The notes beneath the pieces were generated by a model that was not told the DNA's origin, searched no databases, and saw only the letters and a list, made by a program, of their open reading frames with translations. The translations under genes were made by a program, and so were the position numbers. This document shows, one piece after another, positions 1 through 8,088 of a DNA stretch of 64,000 nt. This stretch comes from Pseudohongiella sp. (GTDB lineage Bacteria > Pseudomonadota > Gammaproteobacteria > Pseudomonadales > Pseudohongiellaceae), in the NCBI RefSeq assembly GCF_011050365.1, contig NZ_DRFV01000012.1, forward strand, positions 1 through 64,000, given 5' to 3'. How positions within the stretch are numbered: the stretch's first letter is position 1; each line of letters begins with the position of its first letter.

Positions 1-9
1 GGCTTTGGT

Positions 10-95
10 CAGTGGATCGGGCGCCAAAGCCTGGGGTGATCGGCTCTCGCGACATGCGCTTCGAGGCGATGCACCCCATGCTCTGGAGCCCTCTG
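10..95. repeat. Long palindromic repeat, copy 1 (5' cluster)
   Basis: The unit runs from a CAGTGGATCGGGC-type left end to a GCCCTCTG right end. Bases 19-38 can pair with 72-91 (17 of 20 positions), closing a core (39-71) that begins ATCGGCTCTCGCGACATGCG and is almost identical in the five copies of this window. Copies 1 and 2 lie 141 bases apart, and the stretch between them repeats the left-end motif. The window starts inside this cluster, so more copies may lie upstream. It sits before ribF, outside any credible gene. Confidence 0.8.
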
Positions 96-150
96 ATGGG
101 TCAGGGGCTGGGCAGTGGGTCGGGCTCTGGTCAGTGGATCGGGCTTTGGT

Positions 151-236
151 CAGTGGATCGGGCGCCAAAGCTTGGGGTGATCGGCTCTCGCGGCATGCGC
201 TTCGAGGCGATACACCCCATGCTTTGGAGCCCTCTG
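151..236. repeat. Long palindromic repeat, copy 2 (5' cluster)
   Basis: Same architecture as the copy at 10-95. The arms at 160-179 (GGGCGCCAAAGCTTGGGGTG) and 213-232 pair at 18 of 20 positions around the conserved core. Compared with copy 1, one arm position has changed from a mismatch to a Watson-Crick pair (GCTCTGG to GCTTTGG opposite CCAAAGC), so pairing rather than sequence appears to be maintained. Confidence 0.82.
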
Positions 237-315
237 GCGGGGCAGCGGCGGGTCGGGGTCTGGCTTGTGTTAGGAACAGTGGCAAGTGGCGGTGGGAAGC
301 TGGGGCCTGACGCGT

Positions 316-321
316 TATAAT
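316..321 (+). promoter_or_regulatory. Possible -10 element of the ribF promoter
   Basis: A perfect TATAAT lies 25 bases before the ribF start. No good -35 hexamer is found 16-18 bases upstream (TGGGAA at the 17-base position), so this is a weak call based on the -10 element alone. Confidence 0.35.
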
Positions 322-346
322 CCGCGTTTTTCGGCAGCTTCCGGCA

Positions 347-1303
347 ATGAAAGTCATCCACAGTACTGAAGGTTTCCTGCAGCAGCATACTGGCTGCGTG
401 GCGACGATCGGCAAATTTGATGGTGTCCATCTGGGGCATCAGCGGATTGTGGGTCAGTTGCTGGAAAAAGCGGCTGCTTATGCTGTGCCCTCCGTGGTGA
501 TTGTTATTGAGCCTCACCCTGAGGAGTTTTTTGCCAGAGATCCCCGTGACTGTCCGCCGCGTCTGAGTGAGGCGGGTGAGAAAATCGAATTGCTGCGTGC
601 CCTGGGCGTTGATTATGTTTACCTGCTGGAGTTCAATCGCGAGCTAAGTCGGCTGAGCCCCGAGTCTTATGTAAACGATGTGCTGGTGGCTGGCCTGAAT
701 GTGCGATGCCTGATTGTGGGCAATGACTTTCGCTTTGGTTATCAGCGTGGCGGCGATTTTCAGTTGCTGTGTCGTTATGGTGAGAAGGCCGGTTTTGATG
801 TGGTGGAAACCGCCAGTTGTGAATCGGATGGTGTGCGTGTCAGCAGCACCTACGTGCGTGAGTGTCTGGCCAAAGCGGACTTCGACCGGGTGGCAGAGGT
901 TCTCGGTCGGCCGTATACAATCTCCGGCACCGTGGTACGGGGGCAGCAATTGGGGCGTGATCTTGGGTTTCCGACCTGTAACCTGGCCCTGAACAGACGC
1001 AATATTCCACTGCACGGTGTATACGCCTGTACCGTGGAGATCATCCTCGGCGAGGGCGAGCGCATGGATGCTGTTGGCGCGGCCAATATTGGTTATCGCC
1101 CCACGGTAAAGGAGGCCGGCAAAGCGCTGCTGGAAGTGCATCTGCTGGAATTTGATCAGGACATCTATGGTGCCAGGGTATCGGTGACGTTCCGGCACCG
1201 GGTCAGGCCGGAACAAAAGTTTGAGTCGCTCGAAGCGCTCAAATCCCGTATTGCGCTGGATGTGGAGGAGGTTAAACAATACTTCTCACGCTTCAGGCAG
1301 TAA
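347..1303 (+). CDS. ribF: Bifunctional riboflavin kinase / FAD synthetase RibF
   Basis: Converts riboflavin to FMN and then FMN to FAD in the cytoplasm. The 318-residue length is normal for the family. The N-terminal nucleotidyltransferase-like FAD synthetase domain carries the IGKFDGVHLGHQRI motif at about residues 21-35. The C-terminal riboflavin kinase domain starts near residue 185 and contains the GFPTCNL motif. It is the first gene of the ribF-ileS-fkpB-ispH block, as in many gammaproteobacteria. The 139-base gap before ileS could hold a second promoter, but I see no convincing one. The flavin product is relevant to the NirB and flavoprotein genes further along. Confidence 0.97.
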   Translation: MKVIHSTEGFLQQHTGCVATIGKFDGVHLGHQRIVGQLLEKAAAYAVPSVVIVIEPHPEEFFARDPRDCPPRLSEAGEKIELLRALGVDYVYLLEFNRELSRLSPESYVNDVLVAGLNVRCLIVGNDFRFGYQRGGDFQLLCRYGEKAGFDVVETASCESDGVRVSSTYVRECLAKADFDRVAEVLGRPYTISGTVVRGQQLGRDLGFPTCNLALNRRNIPLHGVYACTVEIILGEGERMDAVGAANIGYRPTVKEAGKALLEVHLLEFDQDIYGARVSVTFRHRVRPEQKFESLEALKSRIALDVEEVKQYFSRFRQ

Positions 1304-1442: not shown

Positions 1443-4280
1443 ATGACTGACTACAAACAGACTCTGAATTTGCCCTTTACCGACTTCCCCATGAAAGCCA
1501 GTCTGGCTCAGCGGGAACCCGGTATGCTGGCCCGCTGGCAAGACATGGACCTGTATCGTCGGATTCGCGAAAGCAGCGCCGGTCGCCCGTCGTTCATTCT
1601 GCATGATGGTCCGCCCTACGCCAACGGTGATCTGCATTTGGGTCACTCAGTCAACAAAACCCTGAAAGACATCATCGTCAAGTCGCGGACGTTGGCCGGT
1701 TTTGATGCGCCGTATGTGCCCGGCTGGGACTGTCATGGTTTGCCCATCGAACACAATGTGGAAAAGAAAAAAGGCAAGGCGGGGCAAAAGATCAGTCACG
1801 CTGAATTTCGTCAGGCCTGTCGTGACTACGCGGCGAAGCAGGTGGAAAATCAGAAGCAGGATTTTGTTCGCCTCGGTGTTTTTGGCGACTGGGACAATCC
1901 CTATCTGACCATGAACTTTGATACCGAGGCCAATATCGTTCGAGCACTCGGGCGCATTGCAGGCAATGGCCATCTGGTGAAAGGGTTCAAACCGGTCTAC
2001 TGGAGTGTCGTCGGTGCCTCGGCACTGGCCGAAGCGGAAGTTGAGTATCAGGACAAAACCTCGTTTGCCATTGATGTCCGTTTCGCGGTGCTGGAGCCAG
2101 CGTCATGGTTGACCGCGTTTGCCGTGAATGAAGAGACAGCGGCCGGTCACAACATCTCCCTTGTTATCTGGACTACAACGCCCTGGACATTGCCTTCAAA
2201 CCAGGCGGTTTGCCTGAACGAAAACCTGGAATATGCCCTGTTGCGCTGCACGGTTGACGTTGCGATAGGTGCAGAGTTGCTGATCATTGCCGCCGATATG
2301 CAGGACGAAGTCATGGCGCGTTATGGCTGCGACAATGTCGAGCGTCTGGGTATTGCCAAGGGTGCAGTGCTTGAAGGCCAGCGCCTGCAGCATCCCTTTG
2401 TCAATCGTCAGGTACCGGTATTGATGGGCGATCACGTCACCACTGACGCGGGTACCGGTGCTGTGCACACGGCGCCGGATCACGGCATGGAAGATTTCAT
2501 CGCCGGCCAGACCTATGGGTTGGGTACGCTGAATCTGGTCGATGAAAACGGCGTATTCGTCGAAGCGGCCGGCGAGCTGGCTGGTGTGCATGTATACAAG
2601 GCAGATGAGCAGATACTGGACATACTGCGACGCGAAAACGCCCTGGTCGCGATGGAGAAAATCCGTCACAGCTATCCGCATTGTTGGCGCACCAAAACAC
2701 CATTGATCTACCGTGCCACGCCGCAGTGGTTTATCAGCATGACCGAGAAAGGCCTGCTGGATGCATCGCTTGCCGCCGTCAAGGGTGTGAAGTGGGTGCC
2801 GGAATGGGGGCAGGCGCGTATCGAGTTGATGTTAAAAGGCAGTCCGGACTGGTGTGTGTCGCGTCAGCGTACCTGGGGTGTGCCCATCACGTTGTTTGTG
2901 CACAAGACAACGGGCGAGCTGCATCCGGACACGGCTGGTCTTATCGAACAGGTTGCACAGCGCATCGAGAAAAAAGGCATTGATGCCTGGTTTGAGGCCA
3001 GTGCTGAAGATCTGCTCGGTGATGATGCCCGTCACTACAATAAAGTAACCGACACCCTGGACGTCTGGTTCGATTCTGGTGTTACGCATTTCTCTGTCTT
3101 GCAACAGCGTGAGGGTCTGGGCTATCCGGCTGACCTTTACCTGGAAGGCTCTGATCAGCATCGCGGCTGGTTTCAGTCCTCATTAAAAACAGCAATTGCC
3201 ATGAATGGCACAGCGCCGTACAAGCAGGTGCTGACACATGGATTCACCGTCGATGCTGACGGTCGCAAAATGTCGAAATCCATCGGTAACACGATTTCCC
3301 CGCAGGAAGTATTCAAGGAGTACGGTGCCGATATTCTGCGTTTGTGGGTAGCGGCGACTGACTATCGTGGTGAGATGGCGGTGTCGCCGGAGATCCTGAA
3401 ACGTGTCGCTGATGCTTACCGCCGTATCCGCAATACTGCGCGCTTCCTGTTGTCCAACCTGAACGGATTCGATCCGGTTACTGATGCCGTCGCGCCAGAG
3501 AATATGCTGGCGCTGGATTACTGGATCACACGTCAGGCGCAACAACTGCGTGAGCAGGTGAAGCAGGATTATGAGAACTATCAGTTCCTGAATGTATACC
3601 AGAAAGTTCATAATTTCTGTGTTATCGAATTGGGCAGTTTTTATCTGGATATCATCAAGGACCGGCAGTATACCGCCAAGTCTGACGGACTGGCGCGCCG
3701 TTCAACGCAAACCGCGATGTATCACATCACGGAAGTGCTGGTGCGGCTGATTGCGCCGATCCTGAGTTTTACCGCCGATGAGATCTGGCAATTCGTGCCC
3801 GGTGAGCGCAGCGATTCGGTGTTCCTGGCGCAATTTGACGAAGGCCTGCCAGTGTTGCCGGTGCGTAATGATTTTAGCGATGCATTCTGGCGCGAGCTGA
3901 TCGAGGTCAAAACTGCGGTCAACAAGGAGCTGGAGAAGCAACGCGCGGAGAAGAAGGTGGGTGCCGCTCTGTCCGCCGAGGTAACGCTGTATTGTGACGA
4001 CGCATTGTTGAAGCGCCTGTCGGCGCTGCAGGATGAGCTGCGCTTCGTCCTGATTGTGTCTGCGGCAAGCTTGCGGCCTATCGCTGACAGCAATGACGCC
4101 GAAACGGTGGCGACTGAACTGGTCGGGTTGCGTTTGCAGGTAACGCCGTCTGCACACGAGAAGTGTGTACGATGCTGGCACCACCGACCGGATGTGGGCA
4201 CCCATGCATCGCACCCTGAATTGTGCGGTCGCTGTGTGGACAATATCAGTGGCGATGGTGAGCAGCGACATTATGCATGA
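1443..4280 (+). CDS. ileS: Isoleucyl-tRNA synthetase
   Basis: Charges tRNA-Ile with isoleucine and edits misactivated valine. The 945 residues match the bacterial class Ia enzyme. The HIGH-type signature HLGH is at about residues 65-68 and KMSKS at 609-613. The CP1 editing domain lies between them ([11 protein letters not shown] motif). The C-terminus has a zinc-finger-like set of cysteines (CVRCWHHR...CGRC), typical of IleS type 1. Its stop codon overlaps the start of fkpB (ATGCATGA), so the two are probably translationally coupled. In most relatives lspA sits at exactly this junction, but it is absent here. Confidence 0.98.
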
Positions 4281-4791
4281 TTCGGATAATGACACCGCCG
4301 CACCGGGCAAGTCTGACGCTGTGGTCTGTGAGGGTGCTCGCGTTACCCTGCATTTTTCGCTGGCATTGCCCGACGGCACCGAGATAGACAGTAACTACGG
4401 CAAGGCACCGGCGACTTTCAGGGTCGGTGACGGTAATCTGCTGCCGGGCTTTGAAGCGGCCTTGATGGGTGCGGGGCAGGGTGCATCGGTGTCAGTGGTG
4501 CTGCCGCCGGACCAGGCGTTCGGGGCGGTCAATGCGGAGAATGTGCAGTCCTTCCCCCGCCAACGTTTCGCCGGGCTGCTGGCCAATACCACGGATCCGG
4601 TAGAGGAAGGCACTGTGGTATCCTTCGCCGATGCCGGTGGCAATGAGATACCCGGTGTGCTCCGGCAAATCGGCGAATTGCATGTGGTGATAGACTTTAA
4701 TCACCCGTTGGCCGGACGCGAAATTCTGTTTACCGCAGATATCCTGTCGGTCATTGCGCCTGGCACCGACGCCGTCAAAATTCAGCTTTAA
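4273..4791 (+). CDS. fkpB: FKBP-type peptidyl-prolyl cis-trans isomerase (FkpB/SlpA-like)
   Basis: A cytoplasmic FKBP with predicted prolyl isomerase/chaperone activity. From residue 20 onward it shows the SlpA-type pattern: [17 protein letters not shown], then the flap and insert region with [13 protein letters not shown], and the ending [16 protein letters not shown]. The start at 4273 gives 172 residues, overlaps the ileS stop and has a GGTGAG-like ribosome binding site. Upstream in-frame ATGs at 4165 and 4255 would extend far into ileS and lack such a site. The family is about 150-170 residues, so length is normal. It lies directly before ispH, a conserved pairing. Confidence 0.93.
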
Positions 4792-4844
4792 GACCGGGCA
4801 GTGCCGTGTCGTCGTAGCGGCGATCCGGACTTCAGGAGACAAAC

Positions 4845-5840
4845 ATGAGTGCAGTGCAATTGTTTGATGTCGAGGTTTCGCCTGATGCGGAAATCAGGCT
4901 GGCGAACCCGCGCGGATTCTGCGCCGGTGTGGATCGGGCGATTGATATCGTGAACCGGGCACTGGATGTTTATGGCGCGCCCATCTACGTGCGTCATGAA
5001 GTGGTGCACAATAAGTTTGTCGTGGATACCTTGCGCCAGCGCGGCGCAATATTTGTCGACGAGCTGGATGATGTGCCGATAGAGGATAGCCTGGGTCGGC
5101 AGCCAATCGTCATATTCAGCGCTCATGGCGTCTCTCAGCAGGTTCAGGAGGAAGCCGCTGCACGCGGATTTCAGGTATTTGATGCCACCTGTCCGCTGGT
5201 GACAAAAGTTCATCTTGAAGTCATGCGTTTTAGCGCTGAAGGCCGTGAGTGTGTGTTGATCGGCCATGCCCGTCATCCGGAAGTGGAAGGCACCATGGGG
5301 CAGTACAATAGCAACAAGGGTGGCAGTATCTATTTGGTAGAATCGGTTGCAGATGTTCAGAAACTCGAGGTTCATGATCCGGCACGGCTGGCTTATGTGA
5401 CACAGACAACCTTGTCGATGGATGATACTGCCAAGGTCATTGACGCGTTGCGCGACCGCTTTCCGCACATCGAGGGGCCACGTAAAAAGGACATTTGTTA
5501 CGCCACCCAGAATCGGCAGGATGCGGTCAAGCAATTGGCGTTGGAGTCGGATTTGTTATTGGTTGTGGGTTCGCCGAACAGTTCGAATTCCAATCGTTTG
5601 TGTGAGCTGGCGGAGCGTATGGGCTGTGAGGCCTATCTGATCGACCGGGTGGATGATCTGAAACCTGAGTGGTTTGTGGGCAAGAAGCGGTTCGGGGTGA
5701 CGGCGGGGGCGTCGGCGCCGGAAATTCTGGTGCAGCAGGTGGTTGATCGGTTGCGGGAGATTTCGGGGCAGGCGCCGTTGGAGGTGCCCGGGGTTGAGGA
5801 GAATATTGTGTTCCGGATGCCGAGGGAGCTTGCGCGGTAA
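4845..5840 (+). CDS. ispH: 4-hydroxy-3-methylbut-2-enyl diphosphate reductase IspH
   Basis: Last enzyme of the MEP isoprenoid pathway; reduces HMBPP to IPP and DMAPP with a [4Fe-4S] cluster. The three cluster cysteines are visible at residues 26 (NPRGFCAGV), 116 (DATCPLV) and 218 (ICYATQNRQ). The substrate-binding SPNSSNS motif follows, along with the TAGASAP motif. Length 331 is slightly longer than the usual 310-320 because of about 16 extra N-terminal residues; the start has a good AGGAGA site. It ends the operon and is followed by three palindromic repeats rather than a simple T-tailed terminator. Confidence 0.97.
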
Positions 5841-5854
5841 ATCCCTTGCAGAAT

Positions 5855-5940
5855 CAGTGGATCGGGCATCATCGCACAGGGTGATCGGCTCTCGCGGCAT
5901 GCGCTTCGAGGCGATACGCCCTGCACACTGATGCCCTCTG
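5855..5940. repeat. Long palindromic repeat, copy 3 (second cluster)
   Basis: Begins 15 bases after the ispH stop. The arms at 5864-5883 and 5917-5936 pair at 15 of 20 positions plus one G-T, with a perfect basal 8-bp GGGCATCA/TGATGCCC. The core is the same as in the 5' cluster, but the arm sequences are different. Copies 3, 4 and 5 are spaced exactly 122 bases apart at the core. Confidence 0.82.
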
Positions 5941-5978
5941 CGAGGGTGATGCTTGAGTGGGTCAGGCGTCAGCTGGTG

Positions 5979-6062
5979 GTGGATCGGACGTCATCGCACA
6001 GGCCGATCGGCTCTCGCGACACGCGCTTCGAGGCGATACGCCCTACACACTGACGTCCTCTG
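5979..6062. repeat. Long palindromic repeat, copy 4 (second cluster)
   Basis: The arms at 5986-6005 and 6039-6058 include a perfect basal 8-bp stem, GGACGTCA/TGACGTCC. Relative to copy 3, two base pairs of this stem have changed on both sides (G-C to A-T and A-T to G-C), which is direct compensatory covariation. The core differs from copy 3 at only a few positions. Confidence 0.82.
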
Positions 6063-6100
6063 CGAGGGTGATGCTAGAGTGGATCGGGTGTCAGCTGGCT

Positions 6101-6184
6101 TTGGATCCGAGGTCATCGCACAGGGTGATCGGCTCTCGCGACATGCGCTTCGAGGCGATACACCCTCCACACTGGCACCCTCTG
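6101..6184. repeat. Long palindromic repeat, copy 5 (second cluster)
   Basis: The core at about 6125-6162 is intact, and the inner stem GGGTG-ATCG / CGATACACCC is present. The basal arms pair poorly, so this copy looks partly decayed. It ends 25 bases before the stop codon of the convergent gene at 6210-7196. Confidence 0.75.
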
Positions 6185-6209
6185 CCGGCTTTAGTGTTTG
6201 ATTCCTTTC

Positions 6210-7196
6210 TTAATTGTTCTGTGCGTCGCGTTCTGCGGCACGGGCTCCGGATAAGATGCCCATCAATGCGTAGTTGCCTTCGTGGCAGGCGTACTCGTAG
6301 ATGGGGCCGTCGCTGGCGGTGTAGTTGATGACCGCGGTCCAGGGGCGTTCCCAGGTGGTGGGGTCTTCGACGGTGAATTGATATTCCAATACGTCGTCGG
6401 CGGTGCGGGTGTAGCGTTCGGTGAACAGGCGGTTGGCGCCGGCGCCGCGAAACGTGCTGTCATCGGAAAAGTTTCTGGTTTGCACAACAAGCGTGTCACC
6501 ATCCCACCAGCCGCGGGAATCGCCGTGCCACAGTTCGATGCGCTCATCAGCGTGGGGTTTGTCACTCAGCGGTACTATTCTGACGTCGTGAATCATTTCC
6601 TGAATGATGGCGACGGAGTTCTCGCTTTGCACGATCTGGTAGTAGCTGTTGTAGCCGGCCATGATGTAGGGCATACCCCAGGTGATGCAGCGTTCCTGCA
6701 GCGGGCGGCCGAGGTAGGAGTCAGTGGCGCCAGGGCGGTCGGCGGCGCGAGCCTGCATGCGGGCGCGGCCTTCTTCGGTCATGGGCGGAATGCGGCCGTT
6801 GGGCGGGTCGACAATCAGTGAGGTGCGGTTTTCCAGGTTGCGGTCAACCATCCAGGCGGCGTCGTAGTTGCCCGTGGCGGGGTCGTAGGATTCGACTTCG
6901 CCCGATACCACAGCATTGAGAAATCCGTCACCGAATAGCGCATCGCCGCCGCTGGCTGCGATTTCTTCAGCTTGCGCACGCAGGTTGGCGAATTCTTCTG
7001 CGGTCAGTTCGGGGCGGTCGCCAAAAAATTCCGGACGCTCCAGTGGCGTGCTGCTGTTGTTGGCCCAGACGCCTTGCAGGTTGGGGTGACCGTTGATGGT
7101 GCGAGGGACCTGCCAGTCGGAGTCCTGAGCGAAACTGTAGAAACTGCTGGCGCATAGCAGCACTAACAGGGCCGGTTGCTGCAACGATGGTTTCAT
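6210..7196 (-). CDS. Secreted protein of unknown function, PDLQGVW-type family, member A
   Basis: I recognise the family pattern but not a function. A signal peptide (about residues 1-24, ending SFAQ) is followed by PRTINGHPNLQGVWANNSSTP, the N-terminal hallmark shared with three other genes in this window. Also shared are the ERC motif, a Q-x-V-x-E block, GDSRGWWDGDTLVV and the C-terminal YEYACHEGNYA. The mature protein has exactly two cysteines (ERC and YAC), suggesting a disulfide in the periplasm. Length 328. The start at 7196 fits a GGAG site; the longer reading frame would run into the upstream gene. It lies 22 bases after member B and is probably co-transcribed with it. Confidence 0.85.
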   Translation of the reverse strand: MKPSLQQPALLVLLCASSFYSFAQDSDWQVPRTINGHPNLQGVWANNSSTPLERPEFFGDRPELTAEEFANLRAQAEEIAASGGDALFGDGFLNAVVSGEVESYDPATGNYDAAWMVDRNLENRTSLIVDPPNGRIPPMTEEGRARMQARAADRPGATDSYLGRPLQERCITWGMPYIMAGYNSYYQIVQSENSVAIIQEMIHDVRIVPLSDKPHADERIELWHGDSRGWWDGDTLVVQTRNFSDDSTFRGAGANRLFTERYTRTADDVLEYQFTVEDPTTWERPWTAVINYTASDGPIYEYACHEGNYALMGILSGARAAERDAQNN

Positions 7197-7218
7197 GATG
7201 ATGTACTCCACGTCCGAA

Positions 7219-8088
7219 TTATTGGGTGACCGGTTCCTGAATGGTGAAGGGCATGCCGCGGGGCGGCTCCCGGTCTGGTGGCGCATCCTTGTTCAGGTAG
7301 CCGTAAATCAGTTCTTCAGCAAATTCCACACATTTGAACTCCAGTAACTGTGCGTTTTCTTCCATGCGCCGGTACAGCGGCAGACTCAGTGTCCAGGGGC
7401 GGGTGAAGGTCTCGGGATCGCGGATTTCAGCTTCATACATGATCAGGTTGGGATTCTCCAGCGTGTAGCGCTCGATGACTTCGAGCTGATCGCTGTGGTG
7501 GTTGCCGGCGCGATCAAACCAGGTGTAGGGCATGAAATCGGTGACGCGTATCACCAGCGTATCGCCTTCCCAGTGGCCACGTGAATGACCCATCCAGGCT
7601 GGTACCGGGCCGTCGAAATCCGGTTGATCCATATACACAATACGCATGGCGCTGGCGAATTCGTAGGCCATGACGGTGTGTTCGGGAGATTGCACAATCT
7701 GGAACGGGTAGGGCATATAGTTGGCGCGGGGCACGCCGGGCATGTAGCATTTGCCCACCGGGTCGAGCGCAGCCCAGTCTCCGGCATTCCGGTTTCGGGT
7801 TTCGAGCGCTTCGGGGGTATAGGGTATCGGACCCTCTTTGACGACGCCCAGCGTGGCGGGGATGGCGCCGTTGGCGCCCATGCGGTAATCGGGGCCGGCC
7901 TTTGCGGCACCGGGTTCGAGGTTCCAGTAAGTGCTGCCCAGCGCCTGCCACAGGCCATTCATATCCGGTTTGCCGTCGGCTGTCCGAGGAATGTCCCCGC
8001 CCTGTGCGTTGGCCGTTGAGCCGGTGCCTCCCAGGCTTACTGCAAACACCGCAGCCAGTAATGACGCTGCCATGAAGTCTTTCGACAT
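7219..8088 (-). CDS. Secreted protein of unknown function, PDLQGVW-type family, divergent member B
   Basis: A 289-residue exported protein with a signal peptide ending TANAQ at about residue 29. The mature start IPRTADGKPDMNGLWQ and the central MGHSRGHWEGDTLVI block place it in the same family as the genes at 6210, 21495 and 29252. It diverges at the C-terminus: YACHEGNY is replaced by EFKCVEFAEE, which keeps the cysteine but not the HEGNY. It again has two cysteines in the mature part. The start has a good GGGAG site. It is the first gene of a two-gene operon with member A. Function unknown. Confidence 0.83.
   Translation of the reverse strand: MSKDFMAASLLAAVFAVSLGGTGSTANAQGGDIPRTADGKPDMNGLWQALGSTYWNLEPGAAKAGPDYRMGANGAIPATLGVVKEGPIPYTPEALETRNRNAGDWAALDPVGKCYMPGVPRANYMPYPFQIVQSPEHTVMAYEFASAMRIVYMDQPDFDGPVPAWMGHSRGHWEGDTLVIRVTDFMPYTWFDRAGNHHSDQLEVIERYTLENPNLIMYEAEIRDPETFTRPWTLSLPLYRRMEENAQLLEFKCVEFAEELIYGYLNKDAPPDREPPRGMPFTIQEPVTQ

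What the first reader, a model, noticed from the sequence alone, without database searches (positions are those of the whole stretch)
5855..6184. Tandem palindromic repeats whose arms co-vary around a fixed core
Three units at exact 122-base spacing fold into long stem-loops. The core beginning ATCGGCTCTCGCG is near-identical in all units, while the outer arms differ but stay complementary: GGGCATCA/TGATGCCC in copy 3 against GGACGTCA/TGACGTCC in copy 4, two paired changes. Selection on structure, in DNA or RNA, is the simplest reading. The array sits between convergent genes, as REP/BIME elements do, but the conserved asymmetric core and variable arms are not the usual REP form. I cannot name a known family.
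Basis: partly seen in the sequence, partly recalled or inferred. Interest (0 to 1): 0.76.

Follow-up and report, generated by a model that had tools for sequence, protein, structure and literature searches.

The report
Clade-specific hairpins bracketing an essential operon
Four related marine bacteria carry a short DNA hairpin with an unchanging centre and paired, co-changing arms at exactly two places, just before and just after one operon of probably essential genes; it behaves like a conserved structured element, probably a transcript-end or boundary signal, and matches no family we could test.

Summary
Three units at 122-base spacing lie at 5857-6185, and two more at 15-235. Each is a 73-base hairpin: two 20-base arms around a 33-base core. 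Searching the whole genome and its relatives shows this is not a dispersed repeat. In four Pseudohongiella species (of 15 genus, 137 family and 391 sampled order genomes) it occurs at exactly two conserved positions, 5.7 kb apart, on either side of the ribF-ileS-fkpB-ispH operon, in one to at least four tandem copies. The core is almost invariant, although fourfold-degenerate sites of the same operon are only 45-54% identical between these species. The arms differ, yet 14 of 20 arm pairs show changes on both sides. Pairing, arm stability and two conserved G-A internal loops favour the strand opposite to the operon. Nine of eleven relatives without the element have a different hairpin across the ispH stop codon; the four carriers lack it, as if the element replaced it. 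Best reading: a lineage-specific, sequence-read hairpin marking transcript ends, at least at ispH. This is inferred; no expression data were available. It is not REP/BIME: two sites only, no tag motif, no transposase linkage. No Rfam, phage or viral match.

The parts
5864..5936 (-). site 2, unit a: hairpin, arms 5864-5883 and 5917-5936, core 5884-5916
   Evidence: z -4.5 (+) and -5.4 (-); 15 of 20 arm pairs Watson-Crick
5986..6058 (-). site 2, unit b: hairpin, arms 5986-6005 and 6039-6058, core 6006-6038
   Evidence: paired changes against unit a; core carries C instead of T in the loop
6108..6180 (-). site 2, unit c: core and inner stem intact, outer arms partly decayed
   Evidence: 11 of 20 arm pairs Watson-Crick
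19..91 (-). site 1, unit: hairpin with different arms, core 39-71
160..232 (-). site 1, unit next to ribF: hairpin, core 180-212; 18 of 20 arm pairs Watson-Crick
5857..6185 (.). whole site 2 array, 122-base period, between the stops of ispH (+) and an unnamed gene (-)
1..240 (.). right-hand end of the site 1 array; continues on contig C3 (two more full units and a partial one), so at least four units in all
   Evidence: adjacency of C3 and C12 inferred from gene order in G007
347..1303 (+). ribF (FAD synthetase / riboflavin kinase), first gene of the bracketed operon
   Evidence: Pfam FAD_syn, Flavokinase
1443..4280 (+). ileS (isoleucyl-tRNA synthetase)
4165..4791 (+). fkpB-like peptidyl-prolyl isomerase (true start uncertain, probably further in)
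   Evidence: Pfam FKBP_C
4845..5840 (+). ispH (LytB); its stop lies 23 bases before site 2, unit a
6210..7286 (-). convergent gene without Pfam match; its stop lies about 30 bases from site 2, unit c

Best explanation
A vertically inherited, structured intergenic element of one Pseudohongiella clade. It forms a 73-base hairpin with 20-base arms that need only pair, and an apical core of about 33 bases whose sequence matters. It most likely acts as RNA at transcript ends: a hairpin that fixes or protects the 3' ends of messages and limits read-through at the two borders of the ribF-ileS-fkpB-ispH operon, with the invariant core read by an unidentified protein or RNA partner. SHOWN: hairpin, covariation, invariant core, two fixed sites, clade restriction, and at ispH the absence of the stop-spanning hairpin that most relatives have. 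INFERRED: that it works as RNA, that the strand opposite to the operon is the working one, the 3'-end role, and the existence of a reader of the core.
For: Both sites begin just after a stop codon: that of the small membrane-protein gene at site 1, those of ispH and the convergent gene at site 2 (in G012 the contig ends before the convergent gene). Nine of eleven element-free relatives have a perfect 7-12-base inverted repeat across the ispH stop (six of them with a loop of only 3-5 bases); the four carriers have at most 6 bases, with a 14-35-base loop (folds). Arms covary: 14 pairs with changes on both sides, 0 of 500 shuffles, and every slid register far lower. The core is almost invariant over 14 copies in four species, while fourfold sites are 45-54% identical. 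Standard pairing is 91.9% on the minus strand against 86.1% on the plus strand. Arms fold better on the minus strand in 11 of 12 distinct units. On the minus strand both conserved internal loops read as tandem G-A (core GAA/GA; base CAGA in 13 of 14 and GATCC in 14 of 14).
Against: There is no U-tract after the hairpin, so it is not a standard intrinsic terminator. A plain 3'-end hairpin would not need a 33-base invariant core, nor be confined to two sites in a genome. At site 1 a minus-strand RNA would be antisense to the upstream gene's end and would need a promoter that was not found. At site 1, relatives without the element show no comparable hairpin by eye (output partly cut; not quantified). 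No expression data were available.
Confidence: 0.42

Rival explanations
1. DNA element: a protein-binding, cruciform or gyrase-type boundary site at each end of the operon. The invariant core is the binding site and the arms drive extrusion.
For: Invariant core; convergent-gene position at site 2; two sites bracketing one transcription unit; REPs are credited with supercoiling roles (PMC3733652).
Against: The strand asymmetry of pairing and of the G-A loops is not expected if both strands of a cruciform serve equally. The exact half-core ATCGGCTCTCG is found only once outside the two arrays, so there is no wider binding-site population.
Confidence: 0.2
2. Relic or local offshoot of a non-autonomous mobile repeat (REP/MITE-like, moved by a hairpin-recognising transposase). 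It inserted once, was copied to a second nearby place, and now only expands in tandem; pairing is kept partly by template switching.
For: Hairpin with bulges and mismatches; intergenic position directly after stop codons, as REPs; variable tandem number; a Y1-transposase-like gene in the genome; template switching can maintain stems (PMC8794818).
Against: Exactly two sites, the same two in four species with about 50% fourfold identity. Y1-like genes are genus-wide, also where the repeat is absent. No copies near that gene. Conserved core mismatches should be erased, not kept, by template switching.
Confidence: 0.2
3. Trans-acting small RNA or sponge made from the arrays, acting on a message elsewhere.
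For: Minus-strand folding preference; tandem copies; in G003 and G012 the core is strongly complementary to the last codons of ispH (rank 1 of 1047 and 2 of 904 windows).
Against: In G000 and G007 that complementarity is ordinary (best rank 291 of 6396 and 38 of 1047). No promoter-like site near the arrays. No Rfam match.
Confidence: 0.12
4. Neutral tandem palindrome without function, kept paired by replication template switching.
For: Template switching creates compensatory changes (PMC8794818); tandem units with identical arms in G007.
Against: Near-invariance of the core, including unpaired positions, across species with strongly diverged neutral sites.
Confidence: 0.06

Closest known systems
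REP / BIME / REPIN elements (GTAG- and CGTC-tagged families, PMC3733652; RAYT-linked, PMC2817692)
   Same: Intergenic imperfect palindromes directly after stop codons, favouring convergent and tandem gene spacings, often thought to act as RNA hairpins.
   Different: REPs are 20-40 bases and dispersed in high copy number; this is 73 bases, at two sites only, conserved between species, with no GTAG or CGTC tag at its foot and no linked transposase.
Stop-spanning bidirectional hairpins between convergent genes
   Same: Same place after ispH in relatives; hairpin shared by both transcripts.
   Different: Those are simple, species-variable inverted repeats without a conserved core.
Integron attC sites (from general knowledge, not tested)
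   Same: Tandem imperfect palindromes whose arms covary.
   Different: attC conserves its outer ends and varies in the middle; this element conserves its middle and varies in the arms. Not compared with an integrase.
IS200/IS605 and REP hairpins recognised by Y1 HUH transposases (PMC8266576)
   Same: Strand-specific hairpin with bulge or mismatch.
   Different: Larger, immobile in the data, and no linkage with the Y1-like gene.

Membership tests
REP/BIME | high copy number dispersed in the genome | tested here: not met
   Pattern with up to 3 mismatches and covariance model: two sites per genome only
REP/BIME | unpaired GTAG or CGTC tag at one end | tested here: not met
   Flanks of 14 copies read GGATC on one side and CTG on the other (given there as reverse complements)
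REP/BIME | unit length 20-40 bases | tested here: not met
   73-base hairpin
REP/BIME | associated RAYT transposase flanked by the repeat | tested here: not met
   Y1-like gene genus-wide, on another contig, no copy of the repeat on that contig
REP/BIME | intergenic position close to 3' ends of genes | tested here: met
   Both sites
known RNA family (Rfam 15) | match to a covariance model | tested here: not met
   None at gathering threshold, none up to E 10
intrinsic terminator | GC-rich hairpin followed by a T-run | tested here: not met
   No T-run after the units; only one weak terminator-like hit, at 6172-6188, at the end of unit c
bidirectional 3'-end hairpin | RNA 3' ends map to the hairpin | not testable with these tools
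   No transcript data
structured element under selection | compensatory changes beyond shuffles and slid registers | tested here: met

The most novel reading that the evidence does not exclude
A new lineage-specific structured RNA class whose invariant core is read by a dedicated partner and which marks both borders of one operon, so that the two flanking transcripts are processed or regulated together.
Probability: 0.3. Interest if true: 0.68.

Novelty: new variant of a known kind. Interest (0 to 1): 0.52.

Why it matters
It is a clean natural case of a hairpin with a frozen core and freely but jointly changing arms, held at two fixed places around core genes while neutral sites in the same operon have diverged to about 50% identity. 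It can show how a new structured element arises, and apparently takes over from an older stop-spanning hairpin, within one genus. It also separates the parts that need only pair from the part that is read.

Tried and rejected
(1) RAYT link: Y1_Tnp gene is genus-wide and unlinked. (2) Known RNA family: none. (3) Phage, plasmid or viral origin: no phage match, one insignificant plasmid match (E 0.3), none in viral contigs. (4) Searches used a pattern with one N too few, so their zero results are void; the viral scan was repeated correctly, but the genome-contig collection could not be rescanned by pattern. Absence outside the genus therefore rests. (5) Core-to-ispH complementarity as a regulatory pairing: striking in two species, ordinary in two; kept only as a lead. 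(6) Coding repeat: the 122-base period breaks the frame, and the core is conserved at every position while fourfold sites in real genes here are not. (7) Lagging-strand single-stranded DNA: GC skew of the window is positive on + (0.05), so the exposed template would be the + strand, not the better-folding minus strand; weak evidence. (8) Diverged versions in relatives: covariance-model searches of 80 ribF loci and 136 family genomes found only the four carriers.

Full report
WHAT IS THERE. The window (contig C12 of the genome, which begins exactly at the window's first base) holds five copies of a 73-base hairpin: units at 19-91 and 160-232 (141-base spacing) and units at 5864-5936, 5986-6058 and 6108-6180 (122-base spacing).

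WHERE ELSE. In the whole 3.6 Mb genome, allowing three mismatches, the core occurs only in these five units and in two more at the end of contig C3, with a fragment beside them. Gene order in G007 shows the small membrane-protein gene of C3 directly upstream of the repeat and ribF, so C3 and C12 are almost certainly neighbours and the site 1 array has at least four units, with the assembly broken inside it. Among 15 genus genomes the repeat is in four (G000, G003, G007, G012), and in none of the other family or sampled order genomes. The ribF scan names two of the carriers as uncultured gammaproteobacterial genomes and the nearest named relatives as Pseudohongiella. In every carrier it sits at the same two places: between the small membrane-protein gene and ribF, and directly after ispH.

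CONSTRAINT. Across ribF, ileS and ispH the four species are 90-95% identical in protein, but only 45-54% identical at fourfold-degenerate sites. Against this, 30 of the 33 core columns are identical in all 14 copies; the three that vary are the two loop positions R and Y and the last purine, which is a bulge. The arms are different in each species and site. On an alignment of 12 distinct units, 14 of 20 arm pairs show changes on both sides; 38 cells carry such changes against 14.0 in shuffles (0 of 500), and slid registers give at most 10. Whole-arm swaps between copies never reach the observed pairing (0 of 20,000); swapped only within a site, the true pairing is the best of 24 at site 1 and tied best at site 2. 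The copies are related, so these counts are not independent events, but several pair positions show three pair types.

WHICH STRAND. Three observations favour the strand opposite to the operon. Standard pairs are 91.9% against 86.1%, because A-C mismatches on the plus strand are G-U pairs on the minus strand. Arms alone fold better on the minus strand in 11 of 12 distinct units. The two conserved internal loops, one in the core (GAA/GA) and one at the base (CAGA...GATCC), can form tandem G-A pairs only on the minus strand. The excess of A-C over G-T cells shrinks when shared ancestry is considered (roughly 10 against 4 distinct events by my count), so this is suggestive, not proven.

HOW IT MAY WORK. 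Nine of eleven relatives without the element have a perfect 7-12-base inverted repeat across the ispH stop codon, next to a convergent gene (six with a tight loop of 3-5 bases, three with loops of 16-33 bases); the carriers do not. The element sits in the same place in the carriers. The simplest account is that it took over as a transcript-end hairpin shared by the two converging messages. At site 1 it separates the upstream gene from the ribF promoter region. The invariant core implies a reader beyond simple pairing. None of this has been shown at the RNA level.

ALTERNATIVES. A DNA boundary site, a relic of a mobile repeat, a small RNA, and a neutral palindrome kept by template switching (PMC8794818) are weighed in the rival list. 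The last is disfavoured by the invariant unpaired core positions. The mobile reading is weakened by the fixed two-site pattern and by the unlinked, genus-wide Y1-type gene.

AGAINST WHAT IS KNOWN. REP elements share the position next to gene ends (PMC3733652) but this element fails on copy number, length, tag and transposase linkage. No Rfam family matches. I therefore call it a new variant of the REP-like intergenic hairpin kind, not a REP.

LIMITS. Two collection scans were spoiled by a pattern error of mine; one could not be repeated. Order-level sampling was partial. 'Essential' for ribF, ileS and ispH is general knowledge from other bacteria, not tested here.

Noticed in passing
contig G000:C3 (L005:1-300) and window 1-240: Contigs C3 and C12 both end inside the same tandem array; the true number of units at site 1 is unknown. 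Extra 20-base sub-repeats (TTTGGTCAGTGGATCGGGC) lie between units.
   Followed up: partly
window 4165-4845: No lspA between ileS and fkpB/ispH, where many gammaproteobacteria have it; the ribF-to-ispH distance is similar in at least one element-free relative.
   Followed up: no
window 5800-5840 and 5884-5916: In G003 and G012 the ispH end can pair over about 16 bases with the core; weaker in G000 and G007. Possible origin of the core from an older ispH hairpin.
   Followed up: partly
window 6210-8088: Two adjacent minus-strand genes of similar sequence type without any Pfam match.
   Followed up: no
G000:C2:382800-383129 (L095:1468-2436): A 322-residue Y1-transposase-like protein of a type found in all 15 genus genomes, perhaps domesticated.
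   Followed up: partly
window 285-345: Inverted repeat (GGAAGCTG/CAGCTTCC) around the TATAAT of the ribF upstream region.
   Followed up: no
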